Shown in pieces: positions 2,155-54,765 of a stretch of 64,000 nucleotides of DNA. The DNA is from Rhabdophis nuchalis. Lineage: Eukaryota; Chordata; Lepidosauria; Squamata; Natricidae. The position numbers and the translations under genes were made by a program. Within the stretch, counting starts at the first letter, position 1. Each line of letters opens with the position of its first letter. The DNA lies in assembly GCA_039707465.1 (NCBI GenBank), contig CM077647.1, positions 44,949,110-45,013,109 of the forward strand, written 5' to 3'. The notes beneath the pieces are model-generated. The model was not told the origin of the DNA and ran no database searches. It saw nothing but the letters and a program-made list of their open reading frames with translations.

Positions 2155-3763
2155 GTAAGTATTCCTATTCATATAATCGATGTGACCAATAAGCAAGTTT
2201 TCCTAGGAATCCTGAAGTAAAAAATTAAAACTGTAGATAAATAAAATATAAATATGAATTTTAAAATGGCAAAACCATAAAATCTGAAGAAAATCATCAA
2301 AGAAGAACTAACATCTACTGTAAAAAAAAATTACCAGAAGGGAAGAATAGAAAGTAGGACATTTAAATCCTGAAGTAAATAAAAACACATCCAGTGTGAA
2401 ACACGTCCTTCAGAACTTTGGATTATTCAAATAGTTTCTGGCCAGAACTGGGTGCTGCCCATATGTCAGTTTCCTTTCTTTAATCCCTTCTGCTGTTTAA
2501 AGTACTTTGATCTACCAGATAAACTGTTGAGAGTTACCCAAATAGCTAGCAGTTATGCTCAGCCAGTTAACTCTCTAGATTCAGTGATTCTCCACGTGCT
2601 GTTTTTGAACTGTGGCAATTTGTGTAAGCCAACTAGGTTCTTCATGATTAATATATATTATCTTGCCTCTTTCTGCAACTTAATGATTTTATATGCAAGT
2701 CTGTAAGGATGTATACAAATGCAATCTTCCCCCATCTCTCAGATTATTTATGATTTTGAACAGGATTTAAAATGAGTTTACAAAAATAAAGAATAGTCTT
2801 TTTATTATTCGATTCTAGGAATTGTTTCCAGCCAACCGGCAGAATGTGGACCATTTTGCCAAATATTTCACAGATGCTGGCCTAAAAGAGCTTTCAGACT
2901 TCCTTAGAGTCCAGCAATCATTGGGGACCCGAAAAGAACTACAAAGAGAACTCCAAGAACGTCTTTCTCAAGAATGTCCAATTAAAGAGGTGGAAAAAAT
3001 AGTTTTTCTCTTATTTAAGCTACATAAAGAGAAAAATAAAATGTATTGCTTAAGAACAGAATAGCTTCATGTAATGCTTGTTCCATGGACAGTTGATGTT
3101 ACTGCTCTGATTTTCATAAGGGTTTGCATGCATAAAATTTAATTATGTAAACCTAGGCATAAGGAATTGTAGGCTCAATTTTAGTTACATTTTAACACAT
3201 TTTTGCCATAGCCAATTTTTAAAAAGCCTGAGACATAGGCTCAAGTGAAAAAAAATCCAGAAAAAAAATTCTCAAATGCATCTCTGTGGAGAGGCAACTG
3301 AGCGTATCTCAGAATAGTCTGTGTTGCTCCGTACTTCGCTCTCCCTCCCAGTTTTGGACCTAGAGTAGAGCTCATGTAAGATATTGCTGATGCTATCTAT
3401 TGCTTCAGTTGTTGACTTGTGACATTAACAAAACTGAGTCACTATTTACCATGCAAGAGAGCAGTCATAATAGTTGTCAAATGAGAATGGGTGAAAAAGT
3501 GACATTTCTGAACTTGGACTGACTGGATAATTTTTATCAAAGAGATGGAATAACTTAGCATATCATATGAAGAAAATCCCTTTAGTGAGGAATTCCTTTA
3601 TCGAGGAAATAAAGCTGCCTCCCACTATGCGGTTTTACAACTGTAGGAATTCTCACTCACTATGTGAGGATAAAAATGCAGTGAATTTGCAGTGAAGTTT
3701 ATGCAGTTGAACATTTCCTGTGGAGTGAATCAAAGGCATACAGGAATATGACATACTTACTTC

Positions 3764-3794
<31 letters not shown>

Positions 3795-4362
3795 GTTTTT
3801 GAGCTGATCAATAAATAAGTCAGGGAGACTTTAATTGGTGCTTAACAGGGTGTTGTGACACAAATATATGTGTGTGTGTGTTACGTTTTTGACCTGATCA
3901 ATAAATAAGTCAGGGAGACTAGTATAGATCTCTTTCGAGCTTTTTAGCTCTCATCAGCTAGCCATACCCTTACTGGGATTCGAACCGGGGCTGTATTGCA
4001 TGTCAGGCAAGAGCGTTAGCCATTAAACCAGCCAGGTTTTCTTATTGCATCAGCTGAGACAGGAGGATAAGTATATATAATTGTTCCACAACACCCTGTT
4101 AGGGCCCCAATTAAGGGAGGAAGCATACTGCTTTCCTCTTCTGCCTTTCGGCTGATCACCAGAGACCATCTAGACAGTAAGCCATGTGTTCCGTTGTGTG
4201 ATTTTTTTAAAATATGTGTGTTAGTTTTATGAGTTGATCAATAAATACAGCCCCGGTTCGAATTCCAGTAAGGGTATGGCTAGCTGATGAGAGCTAAAAA
4301 GCTTGAAATAGATCTATACTAGTCTCCCTGATTTATTTATTGACAAGGTGTTGTGGAACAAT

Positions 4363-4396
<34 letters not shown>

Positions 4397-10300: not shown

Positions 10301-13300
10301 AAATTAAAAAAATAAAAGGGACATGCAGTTGACATGTTTTTAGGCCTCAAGTAGTATAATAAAATTTAATGAATTGAAGTACCCAGAACATCATCATCTT
10401 CCACGAGATGGTCTCCCTATTAATTTGATTAAAAGTAGACATAGGCATGCTTTCTATCACTTGTTTCTGGCAGTAAAAGAGGCAGAACTGAAATCAAGGC
10501 AGGTTTGTTTGGTTGCTTCTCTGGTGCTGATCTGAACTTGCATTCAGGCACAGCTAGAAGGATCTGAAAGTTGAGTATTGGAAATATTAAACAGCCTATA
10601 ATTCATGGGAAGAGGTTTCCAAAAGGAACAAGCAGTTTATTTTTTGTTCAAAAAGCTTACATGAAAGCAGTCAATTCTTTGGCTAAATTATTATTTTCCC
10701 ATTTTCAGTTTTATTTAAGAATTGTGTTCACATTGATCTTGGATTAGTTGTCATGGAAACCAAAATTCTTTGGTTGGCTCTTACTGGGATTGCTGCTATA
10801 AATACTTGAAGGGGAAAAATAGTTTCAGTAGAACAATTTCAGAATAGTTTTGTTTGTATTGTTTTGAATAATGGCCACTTTAAATGGAAGGCTTCTTTTG
10901 TTTGTTTGTTGTCAATAAGTCTATTCTTCCTTTACTGGAAATAAATATTTTATTAAGCCACTATCTTATTCTTTAACTCAATGTGAAACCTATGTCTCCT
11001 ACTATATTTTCCTTCTCCCATTTTCACCTGAATCTCTTAAGAATGAAAGAAGTTCAGAATATAACAATAGCTCGTATGGGCCACATCAAGATCCATGTTA
11101 TTCTGCCATTTTGTATTCATAGTGGCCAACTGGATACCACTGAGGTGCTTATTAGCAGGAAATGAAGAAATATATTTCTTTTCCCCTTTTCCCTTGTAAT
11201 TCATATTTGAAATGTGCTGATTGAAAAACTGGTGGGCTTTCACAGACCTTCATATAATAGATTCACTGTTCTTTCAAATCCATTAAGTTAATAGCTCTTA
11301 ACATGTCTTGTACTAATGAATTCTACAGATAAATTATGGCGCTATGTGAAGATGTGATTTCTAAATCTGTTTTCAATTAGCTTATTTTTTTTTAATTATT
11401 ATTATATTTATACCCCGCCCTTCTCCAAGTGGACCCAGGGCAGCGCACAGGAATATTAAAATACATACAAAAAACATATAAAATTTTTAAAAACTTATTC
11501 CAATAAAATCCTGCGCTAAAAACCGAATTAAAAATCCCCAAATTTAAAACTATCTAAAAGTCAGTAATGGAGGTTACGCTAGGCCGGCTAGATGGAACAG
11601 ATGTGTCTTCAGACACTTGCGGAAGAGGCGGAGGTCGGAGATGGTGCGAAGTTCAGGGGGTAAGTCATTCCAAAGGGCTGGTCCCGCCACAGAGAAGGCT
11701 CTTCCCCTGGGTGTCGCCAGTCGGCATTGTCCAGCCGACGGCACCCTGAGGAGGCCCTCTCTGTGGGAGCGTATCGGTCTGAGGGATGTATGGGGCAGGA
11801 GGAGGTCTCGCATAGGCCCCGAGCCATGGAGCGCTTTAAAGATGGTCGTCAGAACCTTGAAGCGCACCCGAAAGACCACAGGAAGCCACTGCAGCTCGCG
11901 CAGGATTGGTGTTATGTGGGAGTGTCTAGGCGCTCCCATAATCACCCGCGCGGCTGCATTCTGGACTAGCTGCAGCTTTCGGGTGCACCTCAAGGGAAGC
12001 CCCATGTAGAGAGCATTACAGTAGTCGAGTCGAGAGGTGACGAGTGCTTGAGTGACTGTGCGTAAGGCACCCCGGTCCAGTAAGGGGCGCAATTGGCGCA
12101 TCAGGCGTACCTGATGGAACGCCCCCGTGGCCACGGCTGCCACATGGTCCTCCATAGACAGCCGGGAGTCCAGGAGGACACCCAAATTGCGCGCCCTCTC
12201 CATGGGGGCCGGTGTTTCGCACCCAATGGCCAGGGTTGAAATAATCTGGCTGAACCGGGGTGCCGGAAGCCACAGCCACTCAGTCTTGGACGGGTTGAGC
12301 TTGAGTTTGTTACTACCCATCCAGATCCGTACGGCCTCCAAGCACCGGGACATAACCTCGACGGCATCGTTGGGGTGGTCTGGGGTGGATATGTACAACT
12401 GAGTATCATCAGCGTACAGATGATATCCTACCCCAAAACCACGGATGATCTCACCCAGCGGCTTCATATATGTGTTGAACAGTAGGGGCGAGAGGACCGA
12501 CCCCTGAGGAACCCCACATATGAGGGGCCTCGAGGCCGACCTCTGCCCCTCTGCCAACACACATTGCGACCGACCAGAGAGGTAGGACGAGAACCACCGC
12601 AAAACGGTGCCTCCCAGCCCCAACTCCCCCAGTCGGCGCAATAGGATACCATGGTCGATGGTATCGAAAGCCGCTGAGAGGTCTAATAGGACTAGGATAG
12701 AGGAATATCCTCTATCCCGCGCCCTCCAGAGATCATCAACCAACGCGACCAATGCCGTCTCGGTGCTGTGCCCGGGTCGGAAGCCGGACTGGCGCGGGTC
12801 TAGATAATCAACTTCCTCCAAGTGTCGCGGAAACTGTTGAGCCACCACACTCTCTACAACCTTCACTAAAAAGTGGAGGTTGGAGACGGGACGATAGTTC
12901 TCTAATAATGCTGGATCCAGGGACGGCTTCTTGAGGAGGGGCCTTACTACCGCCTCTTTCAAGACGGCAGGCAAGGACCCCTCACTCAAAGATGCGTTGA
13001 CAATGCCCTGGAGCCAGCCTCGTGTCGTCTCCCAGGATGCCAGTACAAGCCAGGAGGGACACGGGTCCAATAAACATGTGGTAGCCCTAAGTCTCTTTGA
13101 CAACTTGTCCATATCCTCGGTAGTAACAAAATCAAACTCCTCCCAAGATGGTGTCACAAGAGCAGCTTCGGCCCGCTCGACTGGACCACTGTCGATGGAG
13201 GGTAGCTCGCTCCGAATCCGAGTGATTTTCTCCTGCAGATAAATCCCAAATTCCTCTGCTCGACCCTGTAAAGGGGCTTCCCGTGCCCTCTGTTGAAGGA

Positions 13301-14949
13301 GGGAGCGGGTCACCCCAAACAGGGCGGCAGGGCGGTTATCTGCGGATGCAATAAGAGTGGCACAATACTCACGTTTGGCCACTCTTATCGCCACTAAGTA
13401 AGTCCTAATATGGTCTCTCACTAGTGTTCGGTCGGCTTCGGAGTGAGAAGATCTCCATCTGCTCTCTAGGCGTCTCTTGTGGCGCTTCATCTCCCTAAGC
13501 CCCTTGGTAAACCAAGGAGCCCAGGTGGTTCGTCGCTGCAAGAGAGGCCGCAAGGGCGCGACTCAGTCCAAGGCCCCCGTGGCCGCACTTAACCATGCGG
13601 CCACTAGGTCCTCAGTCGAGTTGCGGGGCAAGTCCACAGGAATTGGCCCAAGCTCCCTCTGGAACCTTATCGGGTCCATCAGGAGCCTGGGGCGGAACCA
13701 TATAGGAATGTCCAGAATTGGAAACATTTATTTTGTGAGATATCTTATTAAATTAAACATTTTCATTGATTGCAATTCTTCATAAATCAAATGGTCTGAC
13801 TTCAATAATTTCATCAAATTTCTAATTTCTGTAAATTATAGTTTGGCCAGAATATATTCTGTACTGCCCTTCATTCACAACTATTGCATATTCAGCTTTA
13901 AAGGATAAACCCTGCCAACTAATTTGGTATTCTTATCTCTTATCCTCCAGCCATATGGAAGCAAACATAATTTATATTGACTTGCACTTTAGTTTTGCAA
14001 ATCAGAAAGCATGCCAATTTTTCACAGCTTATTTTGCTATATGTCTCTTCTTACATCTATTGCTCTTCCTTGGAAATGTAGTAGATGGCAATCTCTAAAA
14101 TTTTACTCTCTCAGTGCCTCAGTTTGTGTGCTTTGTTCCAAGTGATGATTCTCTAAGAGTTATTGGGGAATTATCATATCCTGTAAAAGTTCATCAAAAA
14201 TTGTAGCAGCATTTAAAATAGCTGTGTAACTTACTATTCCAAAATGTAAGCTTGAGAGATGTTCAAAGATGATTGCTTAATTGAGGCAAAATCTTTATTT
14301 TGCAAAAGAATATATGTGAAAAGCATACAAAAGTTACAATCAGAATTTTTTCAAATAAAGAGAGAAATCAATTGACCTCTGAATTCCTCTAGGTGGCATG
14401 TTTCACTTTTGTGCTCCTTTATGATCTATTAAGATCTCTCTGTTCTCTTTCATTTCTAAGCAAATAATGCACAAAATAGTGTAAACAGATCTTTCTACAG
14501 CTTTTTTAATTAGACTTGTTTCCCTCTAGTTCATTTTCCTCCTCTGGAGTACTGTACATCTGAATCTTTGTTTCCTTCATATCTTAATATCCAGCTGAAG
14601 CCTTGTTATTTGTCTCTGTCCACAGTAGTAAAATTATTTCAGGATGTATTTTTTAAAGCAGCAATAGTATTTACAGGTGGTCTACGACATATAACCATTT
14701 GTTTAGTGAACATTTAATATTACGGCACAAAAAAAGTAACTTACAACTGTTTTTCACATTATGATTGTTGCATCATCTCCATGGTCTCATGATAGAAATT
14801 TGGGTGCATATTTATGACATGTACAGTGTCCCAGAATCATGTCATCATCATTTGTAACTTTCCCAGCCAGATTCACTTAAATTCATTTAACCACAGTGTT
14901 TGTTTTAAGAACTGTGGCAAAAAAGGTTATAAAATGGGGCGCAATTCAC

Positions 14950-32635: not shown

Positions 32636-35499
32636 ATAATACAATACAATAGCAGAGTTGGAAGGGACCTTGTAGGTCTTCTAGTCCAACCCCCTGCATG
32701 GGCAGGAACCTTATACCATTTCAGACAAATGGCTGTCTAACATCTTTTTAAAGACTTCCAGGGTTGGGGCATTCACAACTGTTGGAGGCAAGCTATTCCA
32801 GAGGTTAATTGTTCTTACTGTTAGGAAATTTCTCCTTAGTTCTAAGTTGCTTCTCTCCTTGGTTAGTTTCCACCCATTGCTCCTTGTCCTGCCCCCAGGT
32901 GCCTTGGAGAAAAGTTTGACTCCCTCTTCTTTGTGGCACCCTCTGAGATATCGGAACACTGCTATCATGTCTCCCCTGGTCCTTCTCTTCATCAAACTAG
33001 ACATACCCAGCTCCTGCAGCCGTTCTTCATATGTCTTAGTCTCCAGTCCTCTAATCATCTTGGTTGCTCTTCTTTGCACTCTTTCCAGAGTCTCCACGTC
33101 TTTTCTACATCGTGGCGACCAAAACTGTATGCAGTATTCCAAGTGTGGCCTTACCAAGGCACTATACAGTGGCATTAACACTTCACGCGATCTAGATTCT
33201 ATCCCTCTGTTGATGCAGCCTAGAACTGTGTTGGCTTTTTTGGCAGCTGCTGCACACTGCTGGCTCATATTTAAATGGTTGTCCACTAGGATTCCGAGAT
33301 CCCTCTCACAGTTGCTACTATTGAGCAAGGTACCACCTATACTGTACTTGTGCATTTGGTTTTTCTTGCCTATATGTAGGACCTTACTTTTTTCACAATT
33401 GAATTTCATTTTATTAGACATTGCCCAATGTTCAAGTTTGTCTAGATCCTTCTGTATCTTAAGCCTATCTTCTGGAGTGTTGGCTATTCCTGCCAGCTTG
33501 GTGTCGTCTGCGAATTTGATGAGTTCCCCATTTATCCCCTCATCCAAATCGTTGATGAAGATGTTAAAGAGTACTGGGCCTAAAACAGAGCCTTGGGGGA
33601 CTCCACTGCATACTTCCTTCCATGTAGATGCAGTTCCATTGAGGACTACACGTTGAGTGCGGTTGGTCAGCCAGTTACGAATCCATTTGGTGGTGCTGCT
33701 GTATAACCCACAATTTTCTACTTTATCTAATAGTAGGTTATGGTCTACTTTATCAAATGCCTTACTGAAGTCCAGGTAAATTATATCAACAGCATTCCTC
33801 TGGTCCACTGATTTTGTTACTTTGTCAAAGAATGCAATTAGATTCGTCTGGCATGATCTGTTTTTGACAAACCCATGTTGGCTTTTGGCTATTACTTTGT
33901 TTGCTTCTAGGTGTTCACTTATTTGTTGTTTAATTATCTTTTCCAGAATCTTTCCTGGTATTGAGGTCAGGCTGATGGGTCTATAGTTTCCTGGATCTGT
34001 TTTTTTCCCTTTTTTGAAGATGGGAACCACATCTGCTCTTTTCCAGTCTTCTGGCAGTTCCCCGGTGCTCCAGGATCTCTGAAAGATATAGTTCAGTGGT
34101 TCTGAGATCTCGTCTGCCAGTTCCTTCAGAACCCTGGGGTGTAATCCATCCGGTCCTGGTGATTTGAACTCGTCCAGGGCAGACAGGTGCTCACTTACCA
34201 TTTTCTTCCCTATTTCAACTTGTGTTCCTAATCTGATATTTGTGGTGCTGTTTTTGATTGATTGGACTGTTTTATCCCTTTGTGTAAAGACAGATGCAAA
34301 AAAAGAGTTAAATAGTTCTGCTTTCTCCCTGTTGCTTATCATCTTCTTGCCATTTTCTCCCAGCAGTGGACCAATTGTTTCCTTAACTTTTTTCTTATTT
34401 TTAACATGTTGGAAGAAGCTTTTTTTGTTATTTTTTACTTTTTTGGCAAGCCTTTCTTCATTGTGAGCCTTAGCTTTCCTCACTTCATCTTTACAGGCTC
34501 GGGCTATTTGCTGATATTTTGCCTTGGTTATGTCCCCCTTTTTCCACTTTTTATATTTATCCTTTTTGTCTTTCAATTTGTCAGAGAGTTCTTTATGCAG
34601 CCATGCTGGTTTCTTTTGGGAACTGTTATTTTTCTTCTTCATTGGTATTGCGCTGGACTGGGCTTTTATAATCTCATTTTTCAAAATTTCCCAAGCTTCT
34701 TGAGTTGTTTTCCCCTTGAGGATTCTCATCCATGGAATCCTTCCCAAGCTCTCTCTGAGTTTATTGAAATTAGCTCTCTTGAAGTCTAAGACTCTAGTTT
34801 GACTTTGTTCAACTACTTTTGTTTGCATAATGTTGAATTCCAGTATTTCATGATCGCTTGCCCCCAAAGTTCCTGTAGCTTCTACACCTTCTATCATTTC
34901 CTCTCTGTTAGTGAGAATTAAGTCCAATATTGCTGATCCCCTTGTTCCCTTCTCTACCTTTTGGGAAACAAAGTTGTCTGCTAGGTTTGTTAGGAACCTG
35001 TTGGATCTTCCACTTGGTGCAGAGTTTGTTTCCCAATTGATGTCAGGGTAGTTAAAATCTCCCATTACTATTGCAGTGTGCTTCCTACATACCTTAGTTA
35101 GCTGGTTAGCAAAAAGTACATCCACTTCCTCTGCTTGGTTGGGTGGCCTGTAGTATAGACCTATGACAATATCATTCCCCCCCAACCTTTAATATTGACC
35201 CAAATACATTCAAGATAGTTCTCATCATTGTTGTGCTCTATTTCTGTAGAGATGTAATTATTTCTTATATATAGTGCAACTCCACCTCCTCTTTTATTTG
35301 GTCTATTTCTTTTAAATAATTTAAATCCTTCTAGCTGTATGTTCCATTTGTGGGTTTCATCCCACCAAGTTTCTGTAATGGCAACAATATCGTATCTGCC
35401 CTCATTTACTTGAATTTCTAATTCACCCTGTTTATTCCTCATACTCTGTGCATTGGTGTATAGACATTTGAGTCCATTTTGATTGACCCTGTGTTTTCA
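32636..35499 (-). mobile_element. CR1 LINE with nearly intact ORF2, inside L2 copy B
   Basis: Minus strand. The 5' end lies just upstream of the endonuclease (CLYTNAQSMRNKQGELEI), so ORF1 and the 5' UTR are absent. The 3' end carries GTAGGTCTTCTAGTCCAACC on the + strand with a short (AATAC)n terminal repeat at 32636-32653, the usual short CR1 tail in place of poly(A). No clear target duplication is visible, as is common for CR1. Confidence 0.9.
32711..35442 (-). pseudogene. CR1 endonuclease-reverse transcriptase, single frameshift
   Basis: The frame 35442-35161 gives the endonuclease start (YDIVAITETWWDETHKWN). After a run of seven C at 35177-35183 the second frame (35185-32711, 824 residues, no stop) continues IVIGLYYRPPNQAEE, MGDFNYPDINW, GASDHEI (endonuclease catalytic SDH), then [39 protein letters not shown], catalytic FADDTKLAG, and the C-terminal region through LEYCIQFWSP to VRTINLWNSLPP. 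All catalytic motifs are visible. One homopolymer slip is the only break seen in about 915 codons, so this is a young copy. Confidence 0.9.
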
Positions 35500-49534: not shown

Positions 49535-49919
49535 GTGTGTGTGTGTGTGTGTGTATTTGTGATACGTTTTTGAGCTGATAAACAAATAAATAAGGGAGAC
49601 GAGTACAGATCTATTTCAAGCTATTTAGCTCTCATCAGTTACTGGGACTCGAACCACGGCTGTTTTACATGTGAGGTAGTTGTAATTGCCACTAGGCCAC
49701 AGGTTCTCATCCTGATCAGCTGAGCCAGGGGAACAAGTATATATACTGTGTCACAACACCCTGTTAAGCCTCAATTAAGGTTCAAATCCCAGTAAGGGTA
49801 TGGCTAGCTGATGAGAGCTAAAAAGCTCGAAATAGATCTATTTCTTAATTGGGGCTTAACAGGGTGTTGTGACACAAGTATGCACTTATCCTCCTGTCTC
49901 AGCTAATCAGGAAGAGAAT

Positions 49920-49985
49920 CTGGTGGCATAATGGCTAAGGCTTCTGCCTAACATGTAATACAACCCCGGTTCAAATCCCAGTAAG
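49920..49985 (+). promoter_or_regulatory. tRNA-like polymerase III promoter module
   Basis: TGGTGGCATAATGGCTAAGG (A-box-like) and GGTTCAAATCC at 49968-49978 (B box), followed immediately by the hammerhead ribozyme. Confidence 0.65.
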
Positions 49986-50042
49986 AGTATGGCTAGCTGA
50001 TGAGAGCTAAAAAGCTCGAAATAGATCTTTCCTAGTCTCCCT
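49984..50042 (+). ncRNA. Hammerhead ribozyme, subfamily A copy
   Basis: GGCUAG (49991-49996), CUGAUGA (49997-50003), stem II GAGCU/AGCUC with AAAA loop, GAAA, stem III partly mispaired (UAGAUCUU), UC before the cleavage site (H17=C), CUAGUC (50032-50037) and outer stem AGAG/CCCU with one mismatch. The core is intact. Confidence 0.8.
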
Positions 50043-50072
50043 GATTTATTTATTGATCAGCTCAAAAACCTA

Positions 50073-50111
<39 letters not shown>

Positions 50112-52257: not shown

Positions 52258-53419
<1,162 letters not shown>

Positions 53420-53584
53420 TAATTATCACAGCTCCTGTTCGGGGTCCCTTTAAGGGGAGGAGACTCAACGTCTTCCCTCTCTGTCCTTCGACTCATCCCA
53501 GAGATCAACCAGACAGAGAACCAATTAGATTACTGCTGTGTGACATTTTTTAGATATGTGTTAAGATTTTTAAGGGCTGAAAAT

Positions 53585-53643
53585 AAAGAGACCAGGATGG
53601 ATCCATTTCAGGCTTATTAGCCTTCTTCAGCTGGCCATACTCC
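53585..53643 (-). ncRNA. Hammerhead ribozyme, subfamily B, best copy
   Basis: Minus strand: GGAG, UAU, GGCCAG, CUGAAGA (53630-53624), stem II AGGCU-AAUA-AGCCU, GAAA (53609-53606), stem III UGG-AU-CCA, U and H17=C (53597, 53596), CUGGUC, U, CUUU. Relative to subfamily A, one stem I pair, two stem II pairs and one stem III pair have changed on both strands, keeping pairing. Cleavage is predicted between 53596 and 53595. Confidence 0.9.
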
Positions 53644-53647
53644 TTCT

Positions 53648-53712
53648 ACTGGGATTTGAACTGGTGCTTTCCACCATATGAGACAGGCTTCTCTATGCCT
53701 TGAGCTATCCAG
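53648..53712 (-). promoter_or_regulatory. tRNA-like polymerase III promoter module
   Basis: Minus strand: GGATAGCTCAAGGCATAGAG (A-box-like TAGCTCAAGG), then AGTTCAAATCC (B box with one change). It immediately precedes the ribozyme. The second unit has the equivalent at 53985-54048 with GGTTCAAATCC. Confidence 0.6.
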
Positions 53713-53921
53713 TATCCCTGATATATCAGCCAATTTACAGGACTCTTAAATGAGAGATAATTATCACAGCTCCTGTTTGGGGTCCCTTTAAGGGGAGGAG
53801 ACTTAACATCATCCCTCTCTGTCCTTTGACTCAACCCAGAGATCATCAAGACAGAGAACCAATTAGATTACTGCTGTGTGAAATTTTTTAGATATGTGTT
53901 AGATTTTTAAGGGCTGAAAAT

Positions 53922-53980
53922 AAAGAGACCAGGATGGATTCATTTCAGGCTTATTAGCCTTCTTCAGCTGGCCATACTCC
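53922..53980 (-). ncRNA. Hammerhead ribozyme, subfamily B, second copy
   Basis: Identical to the copy at 53585-53643 in stem I, core and stem II. One substitution in stem III (UGAAUCCA) gives an A.C mismatch. In a dimeric transcript the two copies would lie 337 nt apart. Confidence 0.85.
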
Positions 53981-54077
53981 TTCTGCTGGGATTTGAACCG
54001 GCACTTTCCAGCATATGAGGCAAGCCTTTCTATGCCTTGAGCTATCCGTTTTCCCTGATTACATCAGCCTTTTACAG

Positions 54078-54426: not shown

Positions 54427-54765
54427 GACTTTTATTAATGAGAGTAAACAAAAGACAACGAAACTAATAGCTTTCTGTCTGCATGGTCTTTAGTGAAGAG
54501 CTGAAAGACAGAAAAGGAAAGCAGTAGGCTTCCTCCCTTAATTGGGGCTTACCAGGGTGTTGTGACACAAGTGTATGTATGTATGTAAGTATGTATGTAT
54601 GTATGTATGTATGTATGTATGTATGTATGTATGTATATATGTATGTGTGTCACAACACCATGGTAAGCCCCAATTAAGGAAGGAAGCGTACTGCTTTTCT
54701 TTTCTGTCTTTTGGCTCATCACCAGAGACCATCCAGATAGAAAGCTATTAGTTTCATATAATACA
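54427..54765. repeat. Inverted ribozyme-repeat arms around (TATG)n
   Basis: The left arm (about 54455-54570: AGCTTTCTGTCTGCATGGTC ... CTTAATTGGGGCTTACC ... TGTTGTGACAC) and the right arm (about 54648-54760) are reverse complements, separated by (TATG)n at 54574-54645. The arms are the ribozyme-free part of the 340-bp unit (subfamily A), so the whole is a palindrome with a microsatellite at its centre. Confidence 0.75.

What the first reader, a model, noticed from the sequence alone, without database searches (positions are those of the whole stretch)
53585..53980. A tRNA-promoted hammerhead ribozyme repeat family in a squamate genome
An approximately 340-bp repeat unit carries, in one transcript sense, a tRNA-like module with a consensus B box and immediately after it a complete type I hammerhead ribozyme (CUGANGA, stem II, GAAA, short stem III, UH, two-part stem I with an internal loop). 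Five copies are essentially complete (3912-3970 -, 4271-4329 +, 49984-50042 +, 53585-53643 -, 53922-53980 -) and two are damaged. Hammerhead-bearing tandem repeats of about 330 nt are known from newt satellite 2 and schistosome Smalpha, and hammerheads occur in Penelope-like elements. I do not know of this composite in squamates, so it may be undescribed.
Basis: partly seen in the sequence, partly recalled or inferred. Interest (0 to 1): 0.92.

Follow-up and report, generated by a model that had tools for sequence, protein, structure and literature searches.

The report
tRNA-hammerhead repeats inserted Penelope-style
A short jumping element in a lizard or snake genome fuses a tRNA-like start signal to a self-cutting RNA, and the way its copies end suggests that it is carried by a separate mobile element of the Penelope type in the same genome.

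Summary
The window carries hammerhead (HHR) repeats of two families, A (337 nt, tandem, 53409-54077 minus) and B (~339 nt, older, near 3.8-4.4 and 49.5-50.1 kb). A covariance model finds five full and two damaged HHRs; a strict scan finds three, against none in 100 shuffled windows. A and B HHRs differ at 11 of 53 positions without breaking core or pairs. A tRNA-like module with A and B boxes adjoins the HHR; in 7 of 29 B loci ARAGORN calls it tRNA-Val, ending 7 nt before the core. The window's own assembly holds more copies, some 99% identical. I read them as squamate retrozymes with a tRNA head. New here is how copies end: 36 of 41 A and 47 of 60 B arrays (>=86% identity) end at two internal sites after the HHR, often at (TA)n/(CA)n microsatellites, and many meet inverted copies at the 5' side. 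Penelope-like elements (PLEs) with open frames in the same genome end in a like way (32 of 39). I infer that PLE protein inserts these retrozymes in trans, a published guess now given junction evidence. Cleavage, Pol III use and circular RNA are untested.

The parts
53409..54077 (-). Family A array: about two 337-nt units, transcript sense on minus; 5' end at unit position 193, 3' end at position 186 (position 1 = first nt after HHR cleavage)
53588..53640 (-). Type I hammerhead A2, all 15 pairs formed; predicted cleavage between 53596 and 53595
53925..53977 (-). Type I hammerhead A1, one mismatch in the innermost stem III pair; predicted cleavage between 53933 and 53932
53975..54051 (-). tRNA-like module of unit A1 (extent approximate): A box 54044-54035, B box 53999-53989
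   Evidence: extent inferred
53638..53714 (-). tRNA-like module of unit A2 (extent approximate); B box with one mismatch
53305..53413 (.). (TA)54 microsatellite abutting the array's 3' end, read as the insertion target
3875..4247 (-). Family B copy, unit position 16 to position 48 of the next unit; 3' end abuts CA-rich sequence
3915..3967 (-). Hammerhead B1m, core intact, one stem III mismatch
3965..4038 (-). tRNA-like module, ARAGORN at relaxed score: tRNA-Val (gac)
4244..4343 (+). Inverted family B piece with hammerhead 4274-4326 (all 15 pairs), head-to-head with the previous copy
4343..4369 (+). Family B piece, positions 162-188, abutting (TG)n
3785..3830 (-). Family B 3' piece ending at position 48 before (CA)n
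3831..3868 (+). Family B piece, positions 147-185, abutting (TG)n
49554..49780 (-). Family B copy with damaged hammerhead (stem I 5' strand missing), 3' end at position 50 before (CA)n
49779..49841 (+). Family B fragment: B box plus hammerhead up to position 338
49844..50079 (+). Family B copy with hammerhead 49987-50039, 3' end at position 48 before (CA)n
54445..54570 (+). Family B body piece ending at position 180, abutting a TGTA microsatellite; not in the finding
54651..54748 (-). Family B body piece ending at position 174, abutting the same microsatellite from the other side; not in the finding

Best explanation
These are non-autonomous retroelements of the retrozyme kind. Each unit of about 337-340 nt has a tRNA-like module (inferred internal Pol III promoter) fused to a type I hammerhead whose very short palindromic stem III favours action as a dimer. 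Multimeric transcripts are made and can be cut by the hammerheads (inferred). A PLE protein (RT; GIY-YIG-like motif read by eye) from elements in the same genome takes unprocessed, circular or partly cut RNA in trans, opens AT- or CA-rich microsatellite DNA and starts reverse transcription at one of two internal sites, about 44-48 nt or 175-190 nt after the cleavage position, extending on both target strands, so that copies often sit head to head (inferred from junctions). Shown: anatomy, covariation, young copies, the end signature, and a like signature in the genome's PLEs. Inferred: every biochemical step.
For: HHR: 3 strict hits, 0 in 100 shuffles; 8 double-change cells in 4 pairs among 5 window copies, 0 of 500 shuffles as high on cells; 39 such cells among 24 distinct copies, 0 of 500 shuffles as high and 0-1 with slid helices; A and B differ at 11 of 53 HHR positions with none breaking core or pairs, against 3 of 200000 random and 123 of 200000 transition-biased simulations; cofolding two A2 or two B1p strands gives the dimeric hammerhead with a shared stem III. 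A and B are homologous along the unit: 60% identity, body score 334 against at most 116 in 500 shuffles. tRNA: 8 ARAGORN calls in 7 of 29 B loci (0 of 25 A loci), each ending 7 nt before the core. 3' ends, recount of the arrays with overlapping rows removed: A at >=86% identity 36 of 41 (11 at 25-51, 25 at 173-192), at any identity 40 of 63; B at >=86% 47 of 60 (35 and 12), at any identity 58 of 75; 20 A arrays end at 186 and 21 B arrays at 48 exactly. Microsatellite within 30 nt, any identity: A 7 of 12 and 22 of 28, B 36 of 40 and 11 of 18; other ends A 5 of 23, B 4 of 17. Head-to-head piece at the 5' side: A 22 of 33, B 35 of 50 arrays >=180 nt; at the 3' side 2 and 10. PLE: 3426 first-look candidates, 150 scored, RT up to 96% identical to P0040, open frames up to 1011 aa; 47 PLE segments in 15 loci, 5 cut by the locus edge and 3 continuing into the next unit left out: 32 of 39 end at +46-57 (10) or +85-91 (22) after the PLE cleavage site, 26 of the 32 at a microsatellite; 9 of 15 loci head-to-head. 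+85-91 is ORF nt 113-119; the Anolis PLE protein starts reverse transcription 111-118 bp into its ORF, cuts AT-rich DNA and extends both strands (PMC11167929, main-text section read). Same-sense PLE/retrozyme joints with <=12 nt between, the first element ending at or near one of its sites: 10 of the 22 neighbour pairs in 68 loci, 8 without inverted duplicates, in 6 loci (counted by me).
Against: PLE tail and retrozyme tail regions show no similarity (164 and 167 of 500 shuffles score as high), so what the PLE protein would recognise is unknown. The two retrozyme sites are ~140 nt apart, the PLE sites 33 nt. Pfam finds only the RT in the PLE frame, no GIY-YIG. Closeness of PLE and retrozyme (7 of 15 PLE loci; 16 of 56 retrozyme loci; some of these loci overlap) may only reflect shared microsatellites, and the base rate is poorly known (one B fragment in 36 kb of four arbitrary stretches). 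Units within an array are not clearly more alike than between arrays (261 of 2000 permutations). The unit RNA is not unusually stable (z -0.28). Cofolds of B1m and B2p2 do not give the dimeric hammerhead, and A1 gives it with separate stem IIIs. The pair-count measure of covariation is not above shuffles (86 of 500; 210 of 500), nor is the number of further pair types (486 and 500 of 500). ARAGORN at default finds no tRNA in the window; Rfam finds no tRNA or hammerhead at gathering in 20 loci. In copy B1m a T4 run lies just after the first end site, so Pol III termination could play a part there.
Confidence: 0.72

Rival explanations
1. A tRNA-derived SINE mobilised by a LINE by ordinary target-primed reverse transcription from the RNA's 3' end, with a hammerhead as passenger.
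For: tRNA head with A and B boxes; dispersed copies with microsatellite tails; squamate tRNA SINEs with simple-repeat tails are known (PMC7983390, part 1 of 4 read); a T4 run just after the first end site in B1m.
Against: Two alternative internal 3' ends; in A the only T>=4 run is at about +13, not at an end site; head-to-head copies in most longer arrays examined; hammerhead held by compensatory change. LINE 3' ends were not compared.
Confidence: 0.12
2. Rolling-circle retrozyme model: HHR cleavage, ligation to a 337-nt circle, reverse transcription round the circle to give tandem cDNA (with PLE or another RT). It differs from the best explanation only in the template.
For: Arrays of up to ~4.6 units (1563 nt); published circular RNAs of axolotl and other animals (PMC7229834, sections 13 and 15 read, further passages).
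Against: No clear within-array homogeneity; B 5' ends cluster at +10 to +20 (19 of 75) and at the T-loop (8 of 75 at 276-279), which a circle does not predict; multimeric linear RNA explains arrays as well.
Confidence: 0.35
3. Satellite DNA spread by unequal exchange; the ribozyme is a relic.
For: Tandem head-to-tail units; SINE-derived satellites exist in squamates (PMC10702118, parts 1-2 of 5 read and passages).
Against: Short arrays at many places with preferred 3' ends at microsatellites.
Confidence: 0.04
4. PLE and retrozyme merely share microsatellite hot spots; the retrozyme uses another, unseen enzyme.
For: No shared tail sequence; site spacing differs between the two.
Against: Same kind of internal end choice, inversion habit and target in both.
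Confidence: 0.2

Closest known systems
Metazoan non-LTR retrozymes of axolotl/newt (330/350 bp, HHR_Amex1/2)
   Same: Unit length, tandem type I HHR, very short helix III with palindromic loop, dimer preference
   Different: No tRNA-like module is mentioned in the sections and passages I read; here junctions give an end signature
Sm-alpha / Sj-alpha of schistosomes
   Same: SINE-like repeat carrying a hammerhead; Sm-alpha relates to tRNA-Gln
   Different: Flatworm, different tRNA relation; PLE-type ends not tested there
Poseidon-type PLE of Anolis (PAc)
   Same: Internal end sites downstream of the HHR, AT-rich target, both strands extended
   Different: PLE is autonomous; the retrozyme has no ORF, different stems and other site spacing
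Amniote hammerhead HH9 (RF02275)
   Same: Core and loop II resemble the family B HHR (29.8 bits)
   Different: Below Rfam cut-off; not a repeat (intronic by the literature, PMC3088659 passages)
Squam1/2/3 SINEs of squamates
   Same: tRNA head, simple-repeat tail, squamate
   Different: No ribozyme mentioned in PMC10702118 main text (term count 0); sequences not compared

Membership tests
Type I hammerhead ribozyme | CUGANGA, GAAA, UH and three stems with stem I open | tested here: met
Type I hammerhead ribozyme | Self-cleavage | not testable with these tools
   none
Metazoan non-LTR retrozyme | Short tandem repeats (150-450 bp) each with a type I HHR, no ORF, no LTR/PBS/PPT | tested here: met
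   337-340 nt units, longest frame inside the A array 73 aa; LTR features judged by eye only
Metazoan non-LTR retrozyme | Expressed as linear and circular unit-length RNA | not testable with these tools
   none
tRNA-derived SINE | tRNA-like head with A and B boxes | tested here: met
   cloverleaf recognised in 7 of 29 B and 0 of 25 A loci
tRNA-derived SINE | 3' end shared with a partner LINE | not tested
   no LINE comparison made
PLE-type insertion | 3' ends at fixed internal sites downstream of the HHR | tested here: met
PLE-type insertion | AT-rich or microsatellite target and inverted copies | tested here: met
PLE-type insertion | Template recognised by PLE protein | not testable with these tools
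   tail regions show no similarity
Autonomous PLE | RT and GIY-YIG ORF in the unit | tested here: not met
   no long frame in the 337-nt unit
Rfam HH9 | Score at or above gathering | tested here: not met
   29.8 of 52 bits

The most novel reading that the evidence does not exclude
Retrozymes are to PLEs what SINEs are to LINEs: a Pol III-type tRNA-hammerhead RNA parasite whose copies are made in trans by PLE protein through internal initiation, with template jumping between PLE and retrozyme RNA in one reaction (direct same-sense joints in L002, L029, L050, L057, L072, L074).
Probability: 0.6. Interest if true: 0.85.

Novelty: new variant of a known kind. Interest (0 to 1): 0.74.

Why it matters
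Animal retrozymes have been known without a proven carrier; PLEs were named a strong candidate on circumstantial grounds (PMC7229834 discussion passage; PMC7761336 section 8 read). Here the junctions of young retrozyme copies resemble those of PLEs with open frames in one genome, so the question can be tested with one purified protein and two RNAs. It also gives a squamate repeat whose hammerhead resembles HH9 of amniotes, relevant to the idea that such ribozymes were kept from hammerhead-bearing elements (PMC3088659 passages).

Tried and rejected
Scans of viral contigs and genome contigs: no hit, as expected of a eukaryote repeat. The Pfam GIY-YIG search of the assembly (150 of 1267 candidates scored) gave one hit, which I read as an SLX1-like gene, so that search missed the PLEs that are there. 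Rfam at gathering on the window and on 20 of the 60 repeat loci then held: nothing. Within-array homogenisation as a sign of rolling circles: inconclusive. A shared PLE/retrozyme tail: not found. A search for the L074 PLE-retrozyme joint elsewhere did not complete, nor was a genome-wide count of HHR cores, so copy number is unknown; 1631 and 2487 are first-look candidates, 40 scored each. I first thought the PLE/retrozyme co-location decisive; the B fragment in the control stretches made me lower it.

Ends near the cleavage site: one search shows 10 of its 69 B arrays ending at about 340. In one search, which lets arrays run on, 3 of 75 B arrays end near the cleavage site; 8 of 63 A arrays do (overlap removed), but these are 71-84% identical copies (seven of 67-81 nt, one of 323 nt) that by eye run on into family-B-like sequence, so I take them for alignment breaks. 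In one search two arrays cut by the locus edge fell into the 25-48 class; one search is the corrected count, and its microsatellite rule (four repeats) is laxer than that (five).

Rows dropped: L004, L007, L015, L016 (overlap L003, L006, L008) and L031 in A counts; L006 and L008 still overlap in part (shared rows removed); L064 and L069 overlap in the PLE counts (without L069: 30 of 36); L001, L032 and L069 were left out, which still holds L006 and L008. Loci are the best-scoring matches, so ends come from young, long copies. Of the 23 distinct HHRs, 21 went into; the two left out were one with four unpaired stem I pairs and one with a change outside the pairs. The regex required an intact core; without it 64 of 71 A and 61 of 78 B cores are intact.

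Papers: PMC11167929 main-text section (both parts) and passages; PMC7229834 sections 13 and 15 and passages; PMC7761336 section 8 and passages; PMC10702118 parts 1-2 of 5 and passages; PMC7983390 part 1 of 4; PMC2770079, PMC3088659, PMC6155905, PMC6050309 passages; others search listings only; PMC2933863 not held. That I found no squamate retrozyme in print rests on searches of open-access papers; Repbase and Dfam were not available. Recalled, from no call: GIY-YIG motif reading in the PLE frame, A/B box and hammerhead consensus, hAT-like terminus.

Full report
What was claimed and what is there. Tandem Repeats Finder gives a 337-bp dimer at 53412-54077, 91% matching. A regular-expression scan recovers all seven motifs. 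A strict structural scan finds three hammerheads and none in 100 shuffled windows. A covariance model of 24 distinct copies gives five full and two damaged matches in the window, plus two at chance level. Rfam has no hit at gathering; the nearest family is HH9, 29.8 of 52 bits for the best B copy, and the A copies match no hammerhead family.

Two families. The copies near 4 kb and 50 kb (family B) and the tandem copies (family A) are 60% identical over the unit, and the body outside tRNA and ribozyme is homologous (score 334, shuffles at most 116). Between A and B the hammerhead differs at 11 of 53 positions and none breaks the core or a pair; four pairs differ on both sides. Among 24 distinct copies 39 cells carry double changes, above all 500 shuffles, and 0-1 when helices are slid. 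The other covariation counts (pairs, further pair types) are not above shuffles, and relatedness can inflate the first, so I lean on the slid helices and the simulation. Stem III is UGGAUCCA or UAGAUCUA, a palindrome; cofolding two A2 or two B1p strands yields the dimeric hammerhead with a shared stem III, A1 gives it with separate stem IIIs, and B1m and B2p2 do not give it.

The tRNA module. All five exact B boxes of the window lie in these repeats, and A and B boxes are 44-45 nt apart in the four copies that match both patterns (one has a second A-box match at 72). In loci from the window's own assembly ARAGORN calls tRNA-Val(gac) eight times in 7 of 29 B loci and never in 25 A loci, each time ending 7 nt before the core. 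So tRNA and ribozyme are directly joined in B. Default ARAGORN finds none in the window; at a relaxed score it finds tRNA-Val(gac) in B1m, other or odd calls in A1 and B2m, and nothing in A2 and B2p2. Transcription by Pol III is inferred.

Copies in the genome. The assembly (1.92 Gb, 348 contigs) was searchable. The A unit has full-length matches up to 99% identical elsewhere and arrays of up to about 4.6 units. The B unit matches at up to 96%. Only 40 candidates were scored of 1631 and 2487. Some A units at different places differ by 0.3%, so family A was active recently.

How copies end. Number the unit from the first base after the cleavage site. With exact ends and overlapping rows removed, among arrays of at least 86% identity 36 of 41 A arrays end at 25-51 (11) or 173-192 (25), and 47 of 60 B arrays at 25-51 (35) or 173-192 (12); at any identity the figures are 40 of 63 and 58 of 75. 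Twenty A arrays end exactly at 186 and 21 B arrays exactly at 48. The two windows lie at like positions in the two families. Near the cleavage position end 0 of 41 A and 3 of 60 B arrays (8 of 63 and 3 of 75 at any identity; the 8 look like alignment breaks). In the window nine of eleven pieces end at these sites (my count). A microsatellite lies within 30 nt of 7 of 12 and 22 of 28 A ends and of 36 of 40 and 11 of 18 B ends at the two sites, against 5 of 23 and 4 of 17 elsewhere. Many longer arrays meet an inverted piece of the same family at the 5' side: 22 of 33 A, 35 of 50 B; at the 3' side 2 and 10.

Who does it. Published work on the Anolis PLE protein shows cutting of AT-rich DNA, extension on both strands, and internal reverse-transcription starts 111-118 bp into the ORF that match the PLE 'tail' (PMC11167929). 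I looked for PLEs in this assembly with a Crotalus tigris PLE protein found through a query typed from recall. There are many: 150 scored of 3426 candidates, up to 96% identical, open frames up to 1011 aa. L067 holds a 2972-nt tandem unit whose 658 overlapping bases are identical, and a 989-aa frame with a reverse transcriptase domain; Pfam finds no GIY-YIG there, the motif is my reading by eye. The frame starts at stem II of the PLE's hammerhead, as described for Anolis. Of 39 PLE 3' ends, 10 lie at +46-57 and 22 at +85-91, 26 of these 32 at a microsatellite, and 9 of 15 loci show head-to-head copies; +85-91 is ORF nt 113-119. Thus PLE and retrozyme share target type, inversion habit and a pair of internal end sites. 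They also abut: 22 neighbours within 45 nt in 14 of 68 loci; ten are same-sense joints of 12 nt or less where the first element ends at or near one of its sites (my count; two are inverted duplicates).

What speaks against it. The PLE tail and the retrozyme tail have no detectable similarity; the spacing of the two sites differs (33 against about 140 nt); shared microsatellites could bring both together without a shared enzyme; four arbitrary 9-kb stretches hold one B fragment, so B pieces are not rare. B 5' ends cluster at +10 to +20 (19 of 75) and at the T-loop of the tRNA module (8 of 75). The first may reflect RNA with a hammerhead-made 5' end or second-strand priming in TTTATTTATT; the second is unexplained.

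Placing it. By anatomy it is a metazoan retrozyme with a tRNA head: the axolotl ones have the same size and ribozymes that work better as dimers, and Sm-alpha gives a precedent for tRNA plus hammerhead. Authors of the retrozyme work already named PLEs as a strong candidate for the carrier. The contribution here is a squamate family with direct tRNA-ribozyme fusion and junction-level evidence for PLE-type insertion. I call it a new variant of a known kind.

Noticed in passing
   Followed up: yes
window 49983-50051 +: Family B hammerhead resembles Rfam HH9 (29.8 bits, below cut-off); possible kin of the source of the conserved amniote ribozymes.
   Followed up: partly
L035, L036, L040, L041, L053, L055, L056 (unit position 276-279): Eight family B arrays begin inside the T-loop/B box of the tRNA module, as if reverse transcription stopped there; a base modification is one possible cause.
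   Followed up: partly
L034, L037, L042, L046, L049 and others (unit position 10-20): 19 of 75 family B arrays begin 10-20 nt after the cleavage site.
   Followed up: partly
L062, L063: Short PLE-like pieces with a different hammerhead arm, about 75% identical to the L067 PLE: probably a second PLE family.
   Followed up: no
L074:737-860 - and 3314-3437 +: A PLE hammerhead segment set directly between two family B pieces, present twice as inverted copies.
   Followed up: partly
window 54078 upstream: The A array begins beside GGGGTTGGGGACCCCTG, which looks like a hAT transposon end (recalled).
   Followed up: no
window 32711-35188 - and 11574-13562 -: Long reverse transcriptase frames of CR1 and other LINE type; the first was used to place the organism.
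   Followed up: partly
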